From positions 1-64,000 of the forward strand of contig NZ_JAQVKP010000001.1 in the NCBI RefSeq assembly GCF_028694605.1: a stretch of 64,000 nt of DNA, given 5' to 3'. Under the pieces are notes generated by a model. The model did not search any database and was not told the DNA's origin. It worked only from the letters and a program-made list of their open reading frames with translations. The stretch is from Sulfurimonas sp. (lineage in GTDB: Bacteria; Campylobacterota; Campylobacteria; Campylobacterales; Sulfurimonadaceae). Positions within the stretch are counted from its first letter, which is position 1. The number at the start of each line of letters is the position of its first letter. Positions 1-7,483 of this stretch are shown one piece after another. A program made the translations under genes and the position numbers.

Positions 1-1
1 A

Positions 2-121
2 ATCCTTACCAACATAGCCAATATCCATAAAAATCTCAAGACTTCAAAGGAATTACAACATCTTGTCGCTGTTATCGGTGCTTACACCAAAAAAGAGCTG
101 GGTTTTATGTGCGAAAGTTGA
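2..121 (+). CDS. 3' end of an unidentified ORF open from the window edge
   Basis: Frame 2 is open from the first bases and ends with TGA at 119-121, giving about 39 residues that end in KKELGFMCES. The composition looks like real protein. It overlaps, on the opposite strand, the last ten codons of the truncated helicase, so the helicase C-terminus is antisense to this frame. I do not recognise the family. It may be the end of an inserted gene or mobile element that cut off the helicase. Only the tail is visible. Confidence 0.3.
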   Translation: MLTNIANIHKNLKTSKELQHLVAVIGAYTKKELGFMCES

Positions 122-1836
122 GTAATAGTATTTCTTCTACCAAATAGATTTTTTACAAATATTAAAAATGATGATTTATTTATCTCAAGTATAGTGTCGT
201 TTATTTTTTTATATAAACTATCAAATAAATTTTTATTTTCTTGTATCTCCTCCATGTTAAATTCATTTGACAGTTTAATGATTTTAATTTTATTTAGTTT
301 GTAAAATTCTACTCTTTCTGATATCTCAGAGTCTATAGATATATTTCTATAATCATTTATATCATTATCAAATTTTTCATAAAATATACTACTCTTATAA
401 TTTTCAATTTGTAATAGCTTTGCGTATTCATCCTTTGCAAATTGTTTAAACTTAGCTATTTGATTTATTTTGCCAGATATATCTTGTTCAAAAACTTTTA
501 TACCATCCTCTAGCTTTTCTATACTTTGTTTAGTATCTTCAATTTTTTGTTTTAAAAGATTATACGATTTTAATGAATTATCAATATCTTCACTAAGATT
601 AGAAATTTCATTAACCAATTCGTTGATACGATTATTGTCATGAATACTGGTATCGGCTTTTATTTTTGATATAGTTTCTTGAAGTCTATTTAGTGATTGA
701 TTCTTTTTATTATCATTTCCCCAAATAAAATATAGCCAACTATATTCTTGAAACTCTTTTGCAAAAGCATCACACACATTATCTACAGCTTTATTGCTGG
801 TACTTGTTATTAGCATTAGATTATCAAAATCTTTATTATCAATAATTGCCAATGCTCTTTTAACAATCCTATTTGCTATGATTGACAGAAGAAGTGTTGT
901 TTTTCCTGTTCCCGGTGCTCCTTGAACTGCTACAAGATTCTCTTCTCTTTCAATCTTTTGCATAACTTTTGCTTGTCCAAGTGCAAGTGGATGTTCTCCA
1001 AAAGAGCCTTTGTAAAAATAGGCTATATCTTCATTTTCATAGATTAATGGTTTACCAAAAAGATACTCTTGAACTAGTGTATTTTGAGACAAAATCTCTG
1101 TAGCATTATCTTTTTTATGGTTTAAATCGTTATATATTCGCACGGTATAATCTTCAGCATCAAGTTTAGATAGTATAAAATCAGGCATATTTTCTGTTTT
1201 GTGAACAACCAAATCACTACCAATATCAGATAACTTTTTTTCAATCCACTCAGATACAAAAGAAATTGCTTCTAAAAATCCTTTTGTTCTTAAGTTCGTA
1301 TTTGTTAATTTAGATAAAAACTCTATTATATTTTCACCGTCAACAATATCGTTTTCATCTATTAAAAGTTCATTTACCAAAAAGCTTTTAAAAATACTAA
1401 ATGTAGCTATGTCAGAAATAGCATCAATTTTTAAATTTGTTCCACTCAATTTAAAATTTTTTAATGGTATTGATAAAATAGGATAGATGTATCTTGCATT
1501 TTTATTGTTTAAAAAATCATTACTATTTGAACCTATCAGTAAAGCAGAAAAATATATACTATCATCGATTTCATCTTTTTTTAAAAATTTTTCTTTTTCT
1601 TCCGCTGGTAAAGTTAAAAAATAAAAATATTTTGACAACTCTTTAAAAGTATCATATTGTTTATTTGTTAAGCTAATTGATAAAAAATTATTTGCATCAT
1701 CAATTTGACTGTAATTTACAAACTGCTCATTTTTTAAAGCTTTTCCATTTTTTTTGTCAATTCTAAGTTTATTAGATTTTTCCAAATCCATAAAAGTTAG
1801 CCAATTTTTTAAAATTTTTCTTATTTTATTTTTCAT
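82..1836 (-). CDS. SF1-type AAA/DEAD-like helicase, C-terminally truncated
   Basis: The 584-residue product has a Walker A motif GAPGTGKTTLL near residue 305, preceded by a QAKVMQKI segment like the Q-motif region of superfamily 1 helicases with an AAA_11-type core. A long charged coiled coil (about residues 390-520) follows, which is the usual insertion in this family. No Walker B, motif III or C-terminal RecA domain is present, whereas relatives are usually around 1000 residues. The last residues (SHIKPSSFLV) come from DNA that codes on the other strand for a different ORF, so the gene was probably cut by an insertion or rearrangement near position 120. It lies behind the repressor in the integrative element and is probably cargo. 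It is likely non-functional as a helicase. Confidence 0.55.
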   Translation of the reverse strand: MKNKIRKILKNWLTFMDLEKSNKLRIDKKNGKALKNEQFVNYSQIDDANNFLSISLTNKQYDTFKELSKYFYFLTLPAEEKEKFLKKDEIDDSIYFSALLIGSNSNDFLNNKNARYIYPILSIPLKNFKLSGTNLKIDAISDIATFSIFKSFLVNELLIDENDIVDGENIIEFLSKLTNTNLRTKGFLEAISFVSEWIEKKLSDIGSDLVVHKTENMPDFILSKLDAEDYTVRIYNDLNHKKDNATEILSQNTLVQEYLFGKPLIYENEDIAYFYKGSFGEHPLALGQAKVMQKIEREENLVAVQGAPGTGKTTLLLSIIANRIVKRALAIIDNKDFDNLMLITSTSNKAVDNVCDAFAKEFQEYSWLYFIWGNDNKKNQSLNRLQETISKIKADTSIHDNNRINELVNEISNLSEDIDNSLKSYNLLKQKIEDTKQSIEKLEDGIKVFEQDISGKINQIAKFKQFAKDEYAKLLQIENYKSSIFYEKFDNDINDYRNISIDSEISERVEFYKLNKIKIIKLSNEFNMEEIQENKNLFDSLYKKINDTILEINKSSFLIFVKNLFGRRNTITQLSHIKPSSFLV

Positions 1837-1867
1837 TACACTTCTTACTTTCTAAATTCTACATAAA

Positions 1868-2293
1868 TCAAACTGCTGATTTTGCATCTTCTGATAATAT
1901 GCCGTTTGTTTCTTTAGCTTTTTTCTTAGCTTTAATAGCGGCTATTTTTAGTTCATGATAAAAGATTTCTTGCTCATCTTTATCAAGAGTTCTATAATCC
2001 TCCCATATCTCAATTTCTTTTTCTGAGATATGAGAATTTATTTTATTTGAAATAGAAATCTTATTTTTTTCTATATTATCTTGCAGCATCTCACCTCTGC
2101 CAGTAAGTAGCCAATCAAAAGATATATTAAACATTTGATTAATTTTTAAAACTATTGGTATCGGAATATCTCTTTTGTTTTTACTATAGTTTATATATCC
2201 CTGTGGTGTTATTTCAAGTATTTCAGCAAAAGACTTGCCTGTCATAGCGAGGCTTGTCCGAATTTTCTCTAATCTTTCACCAATTGATGACAT
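1868..2293 (-). CDS. CI-like phage repressor (HTH XRE)
   Basis: The ORF track starts earlier, but the ATG at 2293 (MSSIGERLEKI) has a strong GGAGAAAAT ribosome site just upstream and fits the start of a CI-type helix-turn-helix domain, giving 141 residues. Residues 1-65 form the HTH (SFAEILEITPQGYINYSKNK) followed by the FDWLLTGRGEM signature common in Bacteriophage_CI_repr proteins. The C-terminal 75 residues are a short charged tail with no LexA-type peptidase domain. It is divergent from the rightward early genes, and a consensus promoter with a palindrome lies in the shared intergenic region. It most likely holds the integrative element quiescent. Confidence 0.8.
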   Translation of the reverse strand: MSSIGERLEKIRTSLAMTGKSFAEILEITPQGYINYSKNKRDIPIPIVLKINQMFNISFDWLLTGRGEMLQDNIEKNKISISNKINSHISEKEIEIWEDYRTLDKDEQEIFYHELKIAAIKAKKKAKETNGILSEDAKSAV

Positions 2294-2337
2294 ATTTTCT
2301 CCAAATATACATTTGTTTAATATCCACACTTAAATAC

Positions 2338-2367
2338 TTGACATTTATTAAACAATTGTTTTATAAT
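2338..2367 (+). promoter_or_regulatory. Rightward sigma70 promoter with embedded operator palindrome
   Basis: TTGACA at 2338-2343 and TATAAT at 2362-2367 are separated by 18 bp, an almost ideal sigma70 promoter pointing at the early genes. Between the boxes lies a perfect 12-bp palindrome, AAACAATTGTTT (2350-2361). That is the expected position for an operator of the divergent CI-like repressor. The leader to the first gene at 2611 is about 235 bases. Confidence 0.7.
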
Positions 2368-2534
2368 GCTTTATTAGTTATGTATTTCTATAGATTTCTA
2401 TAGAAACTAATCTTTTATTTTAGCGAAAAATAGGTTGATGTTTGCAAAAGCATATTTGACTGCGGTTTTTGTTTTAAAGTGTTCTTATGTCTTGCTCTTT
2501 CTACATAAGAATACTTTAGAGTAAAAACTCTAAA

Positions 2535-2550
2535 TTTTCCCGCGGGAAAA
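2535..2550. promoter_or_regulatory. GC-core palindrome, copy 1
   Basis: TTTTCCCGCGGGAAAA is a perfect 16-bp palindrome in very AT-rich DNA. The same core (TTTCCCGCGGGAAA) recurs at 5819-5832 near the end of the replicative helicase gene. It lies in the leader of the rightward operon. It could be an operator, a replication-control site or a resolution site. Two copies inside one element argue against chance. Confidence 0.55.
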
Positions 2551-2559
2551 AGTTATTTG

Positions 2560-2578
2560 AAAATTTATTGTTGAAGTA
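2560..2578 (+). repeat. 19-bp inverted repeat, left arm
   Basis: AAAATTTATTGTTGAAGTA is the perfect reverse complement of 2921-2939. The arms enclose the two small ORFs at 2611-2903 and each arm lies just upstream of a gene start. They could be paired binding sites or a long RNA stem. Confidence 0.6.
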
Positions 2579-2610
2579 TTGAGGATGAAAGTATAAAAAA
2601 AGGAGACTTG

Positions 2611-2787
2611 ATGATATACAAAAGCTACGGTGAAGTAATAGCGGCAGCAAGGGAAGCTTTTCGCAATGAAAAAAGAAATAAAAAACAGTATGAAGAGTTC
2701 AAAACTAAAGTGCAGCCTAAAATGATTGGTTTTATTGACGGGATGAGAGCTTTAGGGAGCTTTAACAAAGTTAGGATTAGCGCATGA
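2611..2787 (+). CDS. Small phage-type protein, 58 aa
   Basis: Too short for the ORF track. The ATG at 2611 follows AGGAG with good spacing, and the product is a basic, helical 58-residue protein beginning MIYKSYGEVIAAAREAFRNE. It is the first gene after the rightward promoter and its stop overlaps the next start (ATGA). I do not recognise a family. Its place suggests an early regulatory or DNA-binding protein of the integrative element, but that is inference from position only. Confidence 0.55.
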   Translation: MIYKSYGEVIAAAREAFRNEKRNKKQYEEFKTKVQPKMIGFIDGMRALGSFNKVRISA

Positions 2788-2903
2788 AGTATAAACAGTT
2801 TCAATTCCTCGTAAGTTTAGCGGCTGACCAAGGAATCAAAACAATGGGTGAATTTAAAAAATTCGTTAAAAATTATAGTGCAAATAATATTAATTGCAAC
2901 TAA
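2784..2903 (+). CDS. Very small phage-type protein, 39 aa
   Basis: Begins within the stop of the 58-aa gene (ATGA overlap), which suggests translational coupling. The product MKYKQFQFLVSLAADQGIK is a short helical protein ending YSANNINCN. It has no recognisable family. The right arm of the 19-bp inverted repeat begins 17 bases after its stop. Its reality rests on the coupled start and the protein-like composition. Confidence 0.45.
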   Translation: MKYKQFQFLVSLAADQGIKTMGEFKKFVKNYSANNINCN

Positions 2904-2920
2904 AAACTAAACATCTCAAC

Positions 2921-2939
2921 TACTTCAACAATAAATTTT
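2921..2939 (-). repeat. 19-bp inverted repeat, right arm
   Basis: TACTTCAACAATAAATTTT matches the reverse complement of 2560-2578 without mismatch. It ends 16 bases before the ATG at 2956, close to the AAAAGAGG ribosome site of that gene. Confidence 0.6.
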
Positions 2940-2955
2940 TAAAAGAGGATAAAAG

Positions 2956-3261
2956 ATGAAAATACCAGCAACATTACACAAACTAAACATCACTTTGGAT
3001 GCAGAGCTTTTAAAAGAGATAGAGACATCACAAAGTCAAGACGAGCTTATCGAAAAGCTCTTAACAATCGTTGCCAATCGTCCTAAACTTCACTCAAAAG
3101 AAGATGTTATGAGATTGACAAGCATACCAAAACAGCGGTTTGAACACCTCGTGCGTGAAAATAAAATTCCTCACATCTATATCAATAACAAAATTAGACT
3201 ATTTGATATTGATGAAGTGTATGAGTATCTTAACAAAAATTGCAAAGTAGGTGTAGCATGA
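2956..3261 (+). CDS. HTH excisionase/MerR-like small protein
   Basis: The 101-residue product has a C-terminal helix-turn-helix of the excisionase type: SKEDVMRLTSIPKQRFEHLV recognises DNA, and IPHIYINNKIRLFDIDEVYEYL forms the wing seen in DNA-binding domains of the excisionase family. The first 45 residues are a charged helical region. An AGAGGATAAAAG ribosome site precedes the ATG. The stop overlaps the next gene by an ATGA. It is probably a regulator of the element rather than the recombination directionality factor, since another Xis-like gene sits next to the integrase. Confidence 0.6.
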   Translation: MKIPATLHKLNITLDAELLKEIETSQSQDELIEKLLTIVANRPKLHSKEDVMRLTSIPKQRFEHLVRENKIPHIYINNKIRLFDIDEVYEYLNKNCKVGVA

Positions 3262-3812
3262 ACTGGAACTGGCAAGAAGCTCTATCTATAAAATACAGCA
3301 GAGATGAGATCTTAAAAGATTTACTAAAAGATCAATCTCTCTTATTTGAATTGGCAAAAGAAGATGTCGCAAAAATATTGCAAAAAACAAACTATAACTA
3401 TATAGTCAGAAAGCTACACTACAACGAGATCTATGCTCTTGGGCTTGAAGTAACAAAAAAGCAAGTTGAGAAGATTTTAGAACGAAAAAAGGGATTTTTG
3501 TTTTGTAAAGATGCAAATTGCACTTTTGAAAACTTAACGCTTGTAAGAAAGATAGTTCAACGCATAGCAAACAACATCAAAAACCTATTTGACGAGCGAT
3601 ATGAAACTTGTATCAAGGAGAACTTGAAAACAAAATACATAGAAAACAATGAAGAGGGGTCTTATGATGATTATCTAACAACAATGATACTAGAAGAAGA
3701 AGCTGAAGAAATCTCAAGCAAAAGAACTAAAGAACATAACAGCTATGTAGAGTATATGCAAGAAATCATAAAAGTTGATAGTAATGGACAAACATTACTA
3801 TCATTTTGCTAA
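3258..3812 (+). CDS. Unknown phage/element protein, 184 aa
   Basis: The ORF track begins at 3240, but the ATG at 3258 (MNWNWQEALSIKYSRDEIL) overlaps the stop of the previous gene by ATGA and is the likely start. The protein is highly charged and helical, with no membrane segment or recognised motif. A pair of cysteines occurs at CKDANC. The C-terminus is acidic (ILEEEAEEISS). It lies between an HTH protein and the replicative helicase, so a part in replication initiation or its control is possible, but nothing in the sequence proves it. Confidence 0.6.
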   Translation: MNWNWQEALSIKYSRDEILKDLLKDQSLLFELAKEDVAKILQKTNYNYIVRKLHYNEIYALGLEVTKKQVEKILERKKGFLFCKDANCTFENLTLVRKIVQRIANNIKNLFDERYETCIKENLKTKYIENNEEGSYDDYLTTMILEEEAEEISSKRTKEHNSYVEYMQEIIKVDSNGQTLLSFC

Positions 3813-3815
3813 GGA

Positions 3816-3920
3816 TTAAATAATGTCAGCTATTTTCCAGTGCTTTTTAACTGCTAAATACCCAATTACAGCAGCTAACATAAAGCCAATCGGCACTACT
3901 AAAACACCTATGTTATCCAT
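3816..3920 (-). CDS. Tiny membrane protein, 34 aa
   Basis: Too short for the ORF track. The minus-strand ORF MDNIGVLVVPIGFMLAAVIG is one hydrophobic helix followed by a basic tail (KKHWK). Its ATG overlaps the end of the 84-aa membrane ORF by 8 bp, and an AGGACATGAAAA stretch upstream can serve as ribosome site. The pair is transcribed against the surrounding element genes. No family is recognised. Two overlapping small membrane proteins in a phage-like element recall holin-like or toxin-like pairs, but that is conjecture. Confidence 0.45.
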   Translation of the reverse strand: MDNIGVLVVPIGFMLAAVIGYLAVKKHWKIADII

Positions 3921-4167
3921 TTTTCATGTCCTCCAAAGCCCTTATATAAGTATTCAATTTTACATAAGTCACAAATATTGCTATAGATACCAACATAAAT
4001 ACTATAGCAAATACATATCCATAATTACTGTTCTTCTGCAAAAAATTAATTGCATAAGCACCAAATCCACCACCTATTGCAGTCAATATAACAAGTTTCT
4101 TATACAAAGCATCTACAATCTTTGCAATAAGTTCACTCTTTTCTTTATTTTCCAAAATAACTTCCAA
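3913..4167 (-). CDS. Small two-TM membrane protein, 84 aa
   Basis: The product has a charged N-terminus (about 25 residues) and two hydrophobic helices (LVILTAIGGGFGAYAINFL and YVFAIVFMLVSIAIFVTYV), then a short charged tail. The only available start is a TTG at 4165-4167 with no clear ribosome site, so the exact start is doubtful. The opposite-strand ORF at 3823-4176 looks like its shadow. It overlaps the 34-aa membrane protein and lies head to head with the replicative helicase gene, only 11 bases apart. Function unknown. Confidence 0.45.
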   Translation of the reverse strand: MEVILENKEKSELIAKIVDALYKKLVILTAIGGGFGAYAINFLQKNSNYGYVFAIVFMLVSIAIFVTYVKLNTYIRALEDMKNG

Positions 4168-4178
4168 AAGGCATAATC

Positions 4179-5948
4179 ATGAATGAACAAAATTATAACA
4201 TAAACATAGAAAAAAGCATTTTATGCTCAATTTTTTTTGAGCCACAAACATTACAAGATATTTCCAAAGTACTACATGTAGAAGATTTTTATCTTCCGCC
4301 GCATCAGCTTATCTATGATGCAATGCTTAAACTAAACAAACAAGATCTGCCTATAGATGAAGAGTTCATCAAGCGCAAGTTTCCTAAAGTAGACGATGAT
4401 GCCATGTTGCAGATTTTAGCGGCTAATGCTATCTCGCAAGCAAGTCTTTTCTCATATGTTAAAGAGCTTAAAAAAGACAGTATTGCAAGGCAAATACACC
4501 TTACTTCTCTTGAGCTGCAGCAAGGGTTTGATACTAAGCTGATAGACAAGCTTAACTTACTCAAAGAAGAGCTTGAGAGTGTTGATGGATTTACTAAGCT
4601 TAAAAAAGATAGCTTCAACAATATTTTTGATAAATTTGACATCGATTTTGAAAAAGTCGAAAATGTTAAGTTTGAATATTTGATGGATAACTTTTTAGTT
4701 AAAAATGAAATTACGATGATTTCAGCTCGTCCCGGAACAGGTAAGAGTTTGCTATCTGTTGCAGTGTCAAATATGCTGCTTATTTACAAAACGATAGAGC
4801 AGGTCTTTTATATAGACGGCGACAATAGTATTTCAACACTAAAAGATAGGAACATCCATCATCTAAAAAAACAACATGGTACAAAGTTTAGATACTTTGT
4901 AGGACTTGGCAAAAGTGAACTTTGGCAAATCATAAACACTCTTAAAAAGATGGATTTGTCGGATGCGTTGATAGTTTTTGACAGTATCAAAAACTTTATC
5001 AACGGTGATAGAGATAAAAACAAAGATGTATCACCGGTGATGGAGATACTAAGAACACTTAGAAATAACGGTGCTACCGTAGTATTTCTTCATCATCAAA
5101 ACAAAGCTCAAAAAGATTTTACAAGTGATTACGCAGGCTCTAGTGCATTTGAAGAGGATACATCAAATGCATTTACTCTCAAGCGAAACGATGATAAAAA
5201 TGCTTTGATACTAAAACCGTTTAAAGCTAGAGCTGGCGATTTACAAGAGATAGCATTTAGCTATAACGCTCACAATCATACTCTTACAAAACTAGATATA
5301 TCTTATGCAAAACAGACTAAAGAGATGGACGAGATGATAGAAGAGACGATTGAGTTTCTAAAATCATCACGCAATAAACCAATGTGGAGTGAACTATCTA
5401 AAAATCTTACGGATCTTGGGTATGACAAAGAAAAAGCAGCAAAAGTTATAAAAAATAATGAAGACAAACTTTGGAAATTCGAGAGAGGCGACAGAAATAA
5501 TCAAAAACTTTACTCTCTTATAGAAACTTCTACTACTACAAAATCAAAAGTAGTAGAAACAATTTATGAAGATATTGCAAATTCTGCTCCGATAAGTCCG
5601 ACAACTCCGAGAACTCTATTTTTAGGCACTTCCGAGAATTTAGAAATGGATACAAACAGCTCCGATAACTCCGATAAGTCAAAAGATACACTGTATAGTG
5701 AGAATATTGCACCGATAACTCCGAGAACCTTTAAAATAGGGATTTATGAGGGGTTAGATATAGTTTCCGACAAGTCCGAGAACTCCGAGAACCGAAATAT
5801 ACCACCTGCTTCTCAAAATTTCCCGCGGGAAAATATAGATACAGTGACACAATCCATTTTGGCAAATAGTTCTAATAAATTCTTTCTTGATATGAATGAC
5901 ACTGTTCCGATGGGCGCTTTTGAAAAGATAGAAATGCCGACGCTGTAA
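4179..5948 (+). CDS. DnaB-N / RepA-type replicative helicase of the element
   Basis: Residues 5-105 match the N-terminal domain of DnaB-type helicases (EKSILCSIFFEPQTLQDI). Residues 160-390 form a RepA/AAA_25-type ATPase: Walker A SARPGTGKSLLS, Walker B DALIVFDSIKNF, and VVFLHHQNK as the sensor histidine segment. Residues 385-440 may be a small winged-helix part. The last 120 residues are low complexity, Ser/Pro/Asn/Asp-rich, and are encoded by a 9-bp DNA repeat (see 5588-5792). The family unwinds DNA at plasmid or phage origins. In this position it would replicate the excised integrative element. An AAAAGG site precedes the ATG. Confidence 0.75.
   Translation: MNEQNYNINIEKSILCSIFFEPQTLQDISKVLHVEDFYLPPHQLIYDAMLKLNKQDLPIDEEFIKRKFPKVDDDAMLQILAANAISQASLFSYVKELKKDSIARQIHLTSLELQQGFDTKLIDKLNLLKEELESVDGFTKLKKDSFNNIFDKFDIDFEKVENVKFEYLMDNFLVKNEITMISARPGTGKSLLSVAVSNMLLIYKTIEQVFYIDGDNSISTLKDRNIHHLKKQHGTKFRYFVGLGKSELWQIINTLKKMDLSDALIVFDSIKNFINGDRDKNKDVSPVMEILRTLRNNGATVVFLHHQNKAQKDFTSDYAGSSAFEEDTSNAFTLKRNDDKNALILKPFKARAGDLQEIAFSYNAHNHTLTKLDISYAKQTKEMDEMIEETIEFLKSSRNKPMWSELSKNLTDLGYDKEKAAKVIKNNEDKLWKFERGDRNNQKLYSLIETSTTTKSKVVETIYEDIANSAPISPTTPRTLFLGTSENLEMDTNSSDNSDKSKDTLYSENIAPITPRTFKIGIYEGLDIVSDKSENSENRNIPPASQNFPRENIDTVTQSILANSSNKFFLDMNDTVPMGAFEKIEMPTL
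5588..5792 (+). repeat. Iteron-like array of TCCGANAAN 9-mers inside the rep gene
   Basis: Eleven copies of a 9-mer (TCCGATAAG, TCCGACAAC, TCCGAGAAC and variants) occur as clusters of 3, 1, 2, 2 and 3 at 5588-5614, 5631-5639, 5661-5678, 5711-5728 and 5766-5792. Clusters 1 and 4 are read as Pro-Ile/Thr/Arg-Ser/Thr and the others as Ser-Asp/Glu-Asn/Lys, so one DNA motif is translated in two frames. Conservation is therefore at DNA level, as expected for initiator-binding iterons. A GC-core palindrome follows 27 bp downstream. Confidence 0.65.
5819..5832. promoter_or_regulatory. GC-core palindrome, copy 2
   Basis: TTTCCCGCGGGAAA is a perfect palindrome within the coding end of the replicative helicase gene, just after the 9-mer array. 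It matches the core of the palindrome at 2535-2550. Confidence 0.55.
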
Positions 5949-5977
5949 AAATATGAATAATAAATAGGAAGGTTCAA

Positions 5978-6205
5978 ATGAAAAAATACATACAAACTAA
6001 AAATTTACCAACTATATTTGATTTAAGCACTGATTACTTTTGCCAAAGAATGGGAAAAGAATTCATAGAGAAGGTTCACTATTTTATTCCGCCAAACTCA
6101 TCAAAAACCAAAAAAGCGGTACTTTGGGATATTGAAGCTTTAGATAATTGGATCAGAGGTAATCAAATTGATGATGAGCTTAAGTCTTTGCTAGATAGAA
6201 AATAG
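5978..6205 (+). CDS. Excisionase-like small DNA-binding protein
   Basis: The 75-residue product reads like an Xis/AlpA-type winged helix: an N-terminal HTH-like part, FIEKVHYFIPPN as the wing, then VLWDIEALDNWIRG, a typical closing helix of excisionase-family proteins. It sits 9 bp upstream of the integrase, the usual place for a recombination directionality factor. A GGAAGG ribosome site precedes the ATG. It probably steers the integrase toward excision, though the family is assigned by pattern only. Confidence 0.6.
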   Translation: MKKYIQTKNLPTIFDLSTDYFCQRMGKEFIEKVHYFIPPNSSKTKKAVLWDIEALDNWIRGNQIDDELKSLLDRK

Positions 6206-6214
6206 GTTAAAATT

Positions 6215-7369
6215 ATGTCGTTAATTACAAATGGCACAAAATCCTTTAAAAAAGGAGCAAGAGTGCAAAACATAAAAGCCTCTATAATCAATAGAGAAAA
6301 TAGAAAATATTGGTATGTAATGTACCATGTGTATTTTGAAAACGGCACTGTTAAAAAAGTTGAAGAGAGTTCTAAAGTTTTAAAAACAGAAAAAACTCTT
6401 AAGTATATGCAAACGAAATATCTGCCTGCATGGATTTCTAAAAAACAGAATGAATTATCTTTGCAAAAATTTGAGAGCAAGAAGTTTTCATGTTTTTTTC
6501 AAAAATATCTGATTGAGCATGATACAGATAAAGGTTTTTTAAACAGATTACCAATTTATCGCAAAGTTGTTCAATATTTTGGAGATTTTGAAGTCTCTAA
6601 AATTAATCGGCAGATGGTAAAAGACTTTTTGTTCTCTCTTGGAGATATAAAAAATGATAGCAAAAAGAAATATCTCACTTGTATCAAAGGTGTTTTAGAT
6701 ATTGCACTAGATAGTGAACTGATTTCTAAAAATGTAGCAAAAGATATCATATTTGCAAAAGAAGCCAAAGAAGCTATAAATCCGTTTTCGACTGATGAAA
6801 TATTGCTACTCTTAAAAAATGCAGATGATATGCTTAAGAATTACCTTGGTATTGCATTTTATACAGGCATGCGGAGCGGAGAGATATTGGGACTTATGCA
6901 TGGTGATATTTTATCCAATAAGATATCAGTTAAGCGTTCTATCTCAAGAGGAAACATAACTTCACCTAAAACGATAGGGAGCATAAGAGATATCCCAATG
7001 TTTGAAAGCGTCAAACCGTTTCTGAGAGAACAGATAAAACAAAGTTCTAAGTCTTTATATCTATTCAACCAAAACGGTACAAATATAGATGATATTTCTT
7101 TTTTTAGATATCGCTGGAGAGAGTTGCTAAAAGCTTGCAATATACCTTATAGAACTATCTATAACACCAGGCACACTTTTATAACTGCAATGTTGAATAG
7201 TGGTAAGTTTAAGATTATGGATATCGCTGCGATCGTAGGACATACATCACCGCAAATGATTATGACTAGATATGCAGGGTTTATTAAAGAAAATCATCTG
7301 AAAATTGATACTCATTTAGAAATCTTTAGCGACACTTTTAGCGACAGTTTAAAATTTAAGATTGATTGA
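6215..7369 (+). CDS. int: Tyrosine recombinase (phage-type integrase)
   Basis: This 384-residue protein has an N-terminal AT-hook/Arm-binding-like part (about 1-80), a SAM-like core-binding domain (90-190) and a C-terminal catalytic domain. Visible catalytic elements are the first arginine in TGMRSGEIL, the box II arginine-histidine in YNTRHTFIT (the usual leading His of box II is Tyr here), the GHTSP histidine and the nucleophile in TRYAGF. It catalyses site-specific integration and excision. Its 3' end lies 25 bp from the CCA end of tRNA-Ser, the standard arrangement for tRNA-targeting elements. The element therefore extends left from the tRNA gene. Confidence 0.9.
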   Translation: MSLITNGTKSFKKGARVQNIKASIINRENRKYWYVMYHVYFENGTVKKVEESSKVLKTEKTLKYMQTKYLPAWISKKQNELSLQKFESKKFSCFFQKYLIEHDTDKGFLNRLPIYRKVVQYFGDFEVSKINRQMVKDFLFSLGDIKNDSKKKYLTCIKGVLDIALDSELISKNVAKDIIFAKEAKEAINPFSTDEILLLLKNADDMLKNYLGIAFYTGMRSGEILGLMHGDILSNKISVKRSISRGNITSPKTIGSIRDIPMFESVKPFLREQIKQSSKSLYLFNQNGTNIDDISFFRYRWRELLKACNIPYRTIYNTRHTFITAMLNSGKFKIMDIAAIVGHTSPQMIMTRYAGFIKENHLKIDTHLEIFSDTFSDSLKFKID

Positions 7370-7393
7370 CAAGGCTCCAAAAGTGCCTTCTGA

Positions 7394-7483
7394 TGGTGGA
7401 TAGGGAGGGATTTGAACCCTCGGTACGGTTACCCGTACGCATCCTTAGCAGGGATGTGGTATCGGCCACTCACCCACCTATCC
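7394..7483 (-). tRNA. tRNA-Ser (anticodon GCT)
   Basis: The minus strand folds as GGATAGG...CCTATCC acceptor stem with discriminator A and an encoded CCA (7394-7396). The anticodon loop CTGCTAA gives GCU, the T-arm shows GGTTCAAATCC, and the long variable arm is typical of tRNA-Ser. The 90-nt length fits. The adjacent integrase suggests its 3' end is the attachment site. A second copy of that 3' end was looked for by eye in the window and not found, so the distal att site probably lies to the left. Confidence 0.92.

What the first reader, a model, noticed from the sequence alone, without database searches (positions are those of the whole stretch)
5588..5792. A 9-bp DNA repeat inside the rep gene is translated in two different frames: candidate origin iterons
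Eleven copies of TCCGANAAN lie in five clusters. Clusters at 5588 and 5711 are offset so that they encode Pro-x-Thr/Ser triplets, while those at 5631, 5661 and 5766 encode Ser-Asp/Glu-Asn/Lys. Protein selection cannot explain one motif kept in two frames, so the DNA itself seems to be what is conserved. Origins inside initiator genes are known (lambda O). The array follows a DnaB-N/RepA helicase core and is next to a palindrome.
Basis: partly seen in the sequence, partly recalled or inferred. Interest (0 to 1): 0.72.

Follow-up and report, generated by a model that had tools for sequence, protein, structure and literature searches.

The report
Origin repeats inside mobile-element helicase gene
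A short DNA repeat hidden inside a helicase gene of a bacterial conjugative element is very probably the DNA site that this helicase itself recognises, likely to start copying the element, and every well-resolved relative carries a second matching site, facing the first, near its opposite end.

Summary
The repeat is real: ten exact TCCGANAA plus one one-mismatch copy, in two reading frames, far above chance even at fixed protein sequence. It lies in a Sulfurimonas integrative conjugative element (tRNA-Ser, about 46 kb over two contigs). Beyond the finding: (1) arrays share an architecture, 2-3 nine-mers, a CCTATTTTAGGG-like spacer, 1-3 nine-mers; (2) nine elements carry a second array near the opposite end, on the opposite strand, so the two converge across attP in the excised circle; (3) both arrays co-vary within an element; (4) the motif tracks Rep's C-terminal domain, not its helicase core nor the neighbouring HTH protein, with natural domain swaps; (5) candidate integrase arm sites are different repeats. 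Best reading: iterons bound by a DnaB-like Rep that carries its own DNA-binding domain, the replication origin of the excised element, built like PICI/SaPI origins and placed like SGI1 oriV. Binding and replication are inferred; origin versus control site is open. The nearby palindrome is a separate, element-wide, probably ParB-type site. New variant of a known kind.

The parts
4179..5948 (+). rep: DnaB_N + AAA_25 (DnaB/RadA-like) helicase, C-terminal domain, disordered tail that contains the iterons
   Evidence: Pfam DnaB 2.5e-19 and AAA_25 2.5e-11; Foldseek to DnaB structures 6e-13
5334..5528 (+). Rep C-terminal domain (residues about 386-450), proposed iteron-reading domain, possibly winged-helix (fold not established)
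   Evidence: Motif similarity tracks this domain, not the helicase core; fold predicted only at low confidence
5588..5614 (+). array 1, cluster 1: three 9-mers
5615..5630 (+). spacer TCTATTTTTAGGCACT, a degenerate copy of the conserved CCTATTTTAGGG spacer
   Evidence: sequence; compare relatives
5631..5639 (+). array 1, cluster 2: one 9-mer
5661..5678 (+). array 1, cluster 3: two 9-mers
5711..5728 (+). array 1, cluster 4: two 9-mers (first has one mismatch)
5729..5765 (+). conserved spacer between iteron sets (CTTTAAAATAGGGATTT...)
   Evidence: same position and sequence type in relatives and in the far-end arrays
5766..5792 (+). array 1, cluster 5: three 9-mers
5978..6205 (+). small HTH-type protein, probably excisionase
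   Evidence: position between rep and int; no significant family; replaced by unrelated proteins in relatives
6215..7369 (+). tyrosine integrase
   Evidence: Phage_integrase 3.2e-13
7325..7350 (+). 12-bp direct repeats TTTAGCGACACT, candidate integrase arm sites
   Evidence: the same repeat lies beside both att cores in G327
7394..7454 (-). att: 3' end of tRNA-Ser, repeated at the other element end (contig C25, L055:7656-7716)
   Evidence: 61-bp identity; tRNA-Ser 7394-7483

Best explanation
The 9-mers are iterons: binding sites for the element's own Rep, a DnaB-type helicase that carries a C-terminal DNA-binding domain. After excision, Rep binds the two iteron sets on either side of the CCTATTTTAGGG-like spacer at the 3' end of its own gene, melts the DNA or loads there without a DnaA box, and starts replication of the circular element. 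A second, convergent array on the other side of attP-int, about 2-2.5 kb away in the circle, binds the same Rep and acts as a second origin or as a looping or handcuffing control site. Shown here: the repeats, their DNA-level conservation, the two-set architecture, the second array, co-variation of the two arrays, and motif tracking of Rep's C-terminal domain. Inferred: binding, unwinding, and which array fires.
For: Statistical excess at fixed protein. The array persists inside, across or after the rep stop codon in relatives. In G327 a noncoding second array is identical at 202 of 203 bases to the coding one, and identity ends exactly at the first and last unit. Second arrays lie towards the far end in nine elements, always on the opposite strand. 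Within-element array similarity 80 against 38 across elements, permutation p<1e-5; 68 against 32, p=1e-4, without G327 and G199. Motif tracks Rep C-terminal domain: partial Mantel 0.43, p=0.0025 given core and p=0.001 given HTH; core 0.08, p=0.31; HTH 0.19, p=0.09. Swaps: G000/G419 core 49%, C-terminal domain 87%, same motif; G009/G402 core 87%, domain 36%, different motif; G009/G406 domain 73%, unrelated HTH, similar motif. GATAASTCNGATAAS has 28 hits in 17 genomes, about 24 of them in such arrays, control pattern 1 hit. Distant plasmid Reps are followed by iteron arrays (9 x 22 bp in pHRV44, 10 copies in pSULKU02). SGI1 has rep - iteron oriV - xis - int in the same order, and deleting its oriV abolishes replication (PMC7433901).
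Against: No binding or replication data. The array region of the window is not AT-rich compared with its flanks, and GC skew gives no clear origin signal. The C-terminal domain fold is unresolved: low-confidence models and no significant PDB or Pfam match. Two arrays per element is unusual for a simple oriV. Units for the Mantel test were picked by eye and the elements are related, so its p-values are approximate. Array 2 is followed by a promoter-like sequence in G000, G199 and G327, compatible with an operator role.
Confidence: 0.72

Rival explanations
1. Rep-bound control sites rather than the origin: the arrays serve copy-number control (handcuffing), incompatibility or regulation of xis/int and the far-end toxin-antitoxin genes, and replication starts elsewhere.
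For: Array 2 precedes a conserved TATAAT-like promoter and small genes; array 1 precedes the HTH and int genes; two distant copies suit looping or handcuffing.
Against: Array position directly 3' of rep and two sets around a spacer match proven origins (PMC6092414; PMC7433901); no other iteron array was seen near rep.
Confidence: 0.15
2. Excisionase or HTH-protein binding sites (Cox/Xis-like boxes) that control excision and the int operon from both element ends.
For: Short tandem direct repeats towards both ends; an HTH gene directly follows array 1 in nearly all elements.
Against: The HTH proteins are unrelated between elements that share the motif (G009/G406); the HTH effect is weak once Rep is accounted for; array 1 lies about 1.5-1.8 kb from the att core.
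Confidence: 0.07
3. Integrase arm-type sites.
For: Present towards both ends of the element, as arm sites are.
Against: Different tandem repeats sit right beside the att cores (TTTAGCGACACT type in G327 and in the window; TTTATACACAG in G125); the array persists in G369, whose integrase looks of another type and is on the opposite strand.
Confidence: 0.02
4. Repeat-encoded protein tail: a low-complexity Ser/Pro/Asp tail selected as protein, or neutral repeat expansion.
For: The array is coding in the window and in several relatives.
Against: Two frames, noncoding copies, arrays after the stop codon, motif co-variation.
Confidence: 0.02

Closest known systems
SGI1 rep - oriV (iterons) - xis - int module (PMC7433901)
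   Same: Integrative mobilisable island; iteron array directly downstream of rep and before xis and int; replicates after excision
   Different: SGI1 Rep is a RepA_C/Rep_3-type initiator with 17-bp iterons and a DnaA box; here Rep is a DnaB-like helicase with 9-bp units, no DnaA box, iterons inside the rep ORF, and a second far-end array
PICI / SaPI origins (PMC6092414)
   Same: Two iteron sets flanking a spacer, immediately 3' of a rep gene
   Different: PICIs are phage satellites; here a conjugative element with a DnaB_N + AAA_25 Rep. [quoted passage not shown]
Satellite phage P4 alpha protein with ori and crr
   Same: Helicase carrying its own winged-helix domain that binds short repeats (PMC4234260); two separated cis sites with the same repeats (own knowledge)
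   Different: P4 alpha is a primase plus helicase of another superfamily; here a DnaB-type helicase without a detected primase domain
Lambda ori inside gene O; R6K beta origin at the end of pir (own knowledge)
   Same: Iterons or origin lie within the initiator's coding sequence
   Different: Unrelated initiators; no second array at the opposite end of an integrated element
DnaB-like Rep plasmids of Campylobacterota (pHRV44, pSULKU02)
   Same: Distantly related Rep followed by an iteron array
   Different: Iterons about 21-22 bp apart and of other sequence, intergenic, one gene further downstream

Membership tests
Iteron-type replication origin | Several short direct repeats next to the gene of an initiator | tested here: met
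Iteron-type replication origin | Repeat sequence matched to the cognate initiator's DNA-binding domain | tested here: met
   Comparative evidence only: partial Mantel and domain swaps
Iteron-type replication origin | Initiator binds the repeats and the fragment replicates | not testable with these tools
   needs the bench
Iteron-type replication origin | AT-rich unwinding region and DnaA box | tested here: inconclusive
   No DnaA box in the window array; array not AT-enriched over its flanks. DnaA boxes are not universal
PICI/SaPI-type origin | Two iteron sets flanking a spacer, immediately 3' of rep | tested here: met
   in the window clade the array lies inside rep rather than 3' of it
PICI/SaPI-type origin | Element is a phage-inducible satellite (no conjugation genes) | tested here: not met
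   TraG, TraU, TraH, TrbI and coupling protein in the window's element; relaxase-like protein in G327
P4 ori/crr system | Two separated cis sites with shared repeats | tested here: met
P4 ori/crr system | P4 alpha-type initiator (primase + helicase fused) | tested here: not met
   DnaB_N + AAA_25; Foldseek to DnaB
SGI1-type oriV | Gene order rep - iterons - xis - int | tested here: met
   the xis role of the HTH gene is inferred
SGI1-type oriV | Rep_3/RepA_C-type initiator | tested here: not met
Tyrosine-integrase arm sites | Lie close to the att core and follow the integrase | tested here: not met
   Other repeats occupy that place; the array does not follow integrase type

The most novel reading that the evidence does not exclude
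A split, circle-dependent origin: the two convergent arrays lie towards opposite ends of the integrated element and only come within about 2-2.5 kb of each other, across attP and int, after excision. Rep would bridge both arrays, so replication starts only on the excised circle and not from within the chromosome, a built-in switch tying replication to excision.
Probability: 0.15. Interest if true: 0.8.

Novelty: new variant of a known kind. Interest (0 to 1): 0.6.

Why it matters
Many conjugative elements carry replication genes but few have a located origin. Here comparative sequence alone points to a compact initiator-origin pair in a phylum with few genetic tools, shows a PICI-like two-set layout outside phage satellites, and supplies natural domain swaps that make the Rep-iteron code directly testable. 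The convergent second array raises a testable idea for how an element keeps its origin silent while integrated.

Tried and rejected
Chance or codon bias: rejected by shuffles. Protein-tail selection: rejected by noncoding copies and post-stop arrays. Integrase arm sites: rejected, other repeats flank the att cores. Palindrome as part of the origin: rejected, it is dispersed over the element. DnaA boxes near the arrays: none in the window. GC skew of the G327 element: no clear inflection. AlphaFold of Rep with three sequences and of the C-terminal domain alone: too low in confidence to call the fold. PDB and Pfam searches with the C-terminal domain profile: nothing significant. Viral-contig scan: no relatives. 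The same 9-mers were not present beside the distant plasmid and phage relatives, which have other repeats or none. Element ends of G369 and of the second G327 element were not cleanly resolved. Four of the 28 genome-wide pattern hits lie in unrelated genes and are chance. Weaker or absent array: G351, which also lacks the HTH gene.

Full report
OBSERVATION. Codon shuffling gives a mean of 0.30 and a maximum of 4; redrawing synonymous codons under the fixed protein gives at most 6 in 20,000 trials, against 10 observed. Protein sequence therefore does not explain the repeats.

SETTING. The host gene (4179-5948) is a DnaB_N + AAA_25 helicase whose model matches DnaB structures. It is followed by a small HTH-type protein, a tyrosine integrase and tRNA-Ser. 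The 3' end of the tRNA is repeated over 61 bases on contig C25 (L055:7656-7716), which marks the other end of the element. C25 carries F-type conjugation genes (TraG, TraU, TraH, TrbI, coupling protein) and ParA/ParB, so this is an integrative conjugative element of about 46 kb if C25 and C13 are adjacent (inference). The closest relative in a single-contig genome, G327, sits in tRNA-Met, is about 16.4 kb between 49-bp repeats, and carries a relaxase-like and a TraG_N protein. Named relatives are Sulfurimonas.

DNA IS CONSERVED, PROTEIN IS NOT. Close relatives (G199, G327, G419) have the same 9-mers in the same two frames. More distant relatives keep a GAYAAS-type nine-mer array at the 3' end of rep, but the stop codon falls after the array (G310, G402, G406, G125), within it (G327 second element, G484) or before it (G009, G369). 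The common plan is 2-3 nine-mers, a CCTATTTTAGGG-like spacer, then 1-3 nine-mers.

A SECOND ARRAY. Nine elements have another array towards their far end, on the opposite strand to the first: G000 L055:8544-8633, G199 L056:3031-3118, G327 L050:7881-8085, G009 L063, G369 L065 (two), G125 L057, G402 L091, G406 L093, G484 L096. Where the att site was found (G000, G199, G327, G009, G125), the array is about 0.15-0.9 kb from it. Seven of ten second arrays overlap no ORF of 60 codons or more; three touch short mechanical ORFs, and in G000 the first three units fall in the last codons of an 81-codon ORF. In G327 the coding and the noncoding array agree at 202 of 203 bases, and identity stops exactly at the first and last unit. 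In the excised circle the two arrays would converge across attP and int, about 2-2.5 kb apart (arithmetic from these coordinates).

WHO READS THE MOTIF. Array 1 and array 2 of one element resemble each other more than arrays of different elements: mean score 80 against 38, p<1e-5; 68 against 32, p=1e-4, without G327 and G199. In G402 both arrays have switched to TACAAG-type units. Across 15 elements motif similarity follows Rep's C-terminal domain (partial Mantel 0.43, p=0.0025 given the helicase core; p=0.001 given the HTH protein), not the core (0.08, p=0.31), and only weakly the HTH protein (0.19, p=0.09). Natural swaps agree: G000 and G419 share 87% of the domain but 49% of the core and have the same motif; G009 and G402 share 87% of the core but 36% of the domain and differ in motif; G009 and G406 share the domain (73%) and the motif type but have unrelated HTH proteins. 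Units were chosen by eye, and the elements are related, so these p-values are approximate.

SPECIFICITY. GATAASTCNGATAAS occurs 28 times in 17 genomes; the reversed control occurs once. About 24 hits lie in such arrays; four lie in unrelated genes.

NOT INTEGRASE SITES. Other tandem repeats flank the att cores: TTTAGCGACACT type in G327 at both ends and in the window at 7325-7350, and TTTATACACAG in G125 at both ends. G369 keeps the array although its integrase looks of another type and is on the opposite strand.

PALINDROME. TTTCCCRYGGGAAA occurs seven times in G000, all within this element (C13 2536 and 5819; C25 156281-180415), and nowhere else in that genome. The element encodes a ParB-type protein. 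It is probably a dispersed ParB or KorB-like site and not part of the origin (inference).

MECHANISM. Most likely Rep binds the iterons through its C-terminal domain and starts replication of the excised element. The layout matches SGI1 (rep - iteron oriV - xis - int; deletion of oriV abolishes replication; PMC7433901) and PICI origins (two iteron sets around a spacer, 3' of rep; PMC6092414). A helicase carrying its own repeat-binding domain works like P4 alpha (PMC4234260). Distant Campylobacterota plasmid Reps of the same general type are followed by iteron arrays. Shown: anatomy, conservation, co-variation, motif tracking. Inferred: binding, unwinding, origin use. The second array may be a second origin, a looping partner or a copy-control site.

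LIMITS. No binding or replication data; the C-terminal domain's fold is unresolved; the array is not AT-rich against its flanks and has no DnaA box; skew is uninformative.

Noticed in passing
window 2536-2549 and 5819-5832; L072:3282, 8979, 11278, 17948; L073:7417: Palindrome TTTCCC(G/A)(C/T)GGGAAA, seven copies, all within the conjugative element and none elsewhere in the 2.1-Mb genome; the element encodes ParA and ParB, so these are probably dispersed partition or KorB-like operator sites.
   Followed up: partly
window 1-7454 and contig C25 143655-182610: The element appears to continue from the window onto C25, with F-type conjugation genes and ParA/ParB, about 46 kb in all; an SF1 helicase seems split at the contig junction (window 82-1836 with AAA_11, L073:7962-9548 with AAA_11/AAA_12).
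   Followed up: partly
window 7325-7350; L038:6520 and L050:8701; L042:9940 and L057:7950: Short tandem direct repeats beside the att cores, candidate integrase arm sites, different for different integrases.
   Followed up: partly
Rep residues 386-450, G000 against G419 and G009 against G402: Modular exchange of Rep's C-terminal domain between elements with otherwise dissimilar or similar helicase cores.
   Followed up: yes
L050:8085-8140, L055:8460-8540, L056:3110-3170: A conserved promoter-like TAGTATGTTATAATTTTAAA directly follows the second array and precedes small genes; a ParE-type toxin gene lies just downstream in G327.
   Followed up: no
L098:5643-6175 (pHRV44) and L100:5833-6185 (pSULKU02): Iteron arrays (9 x 22 bp and 10 copies of about 17 bp) downstream of distantly related DnaB-like Rep genes on Campylobacterota plasmids.
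   Followed up: partly
L103:3446 (G125 C9), L106:3521 (G377 C75): Further noncoding arrays with the same spacer, each near a ribB-like gene, suggesting other element ends at that locus.
   Followed up: no
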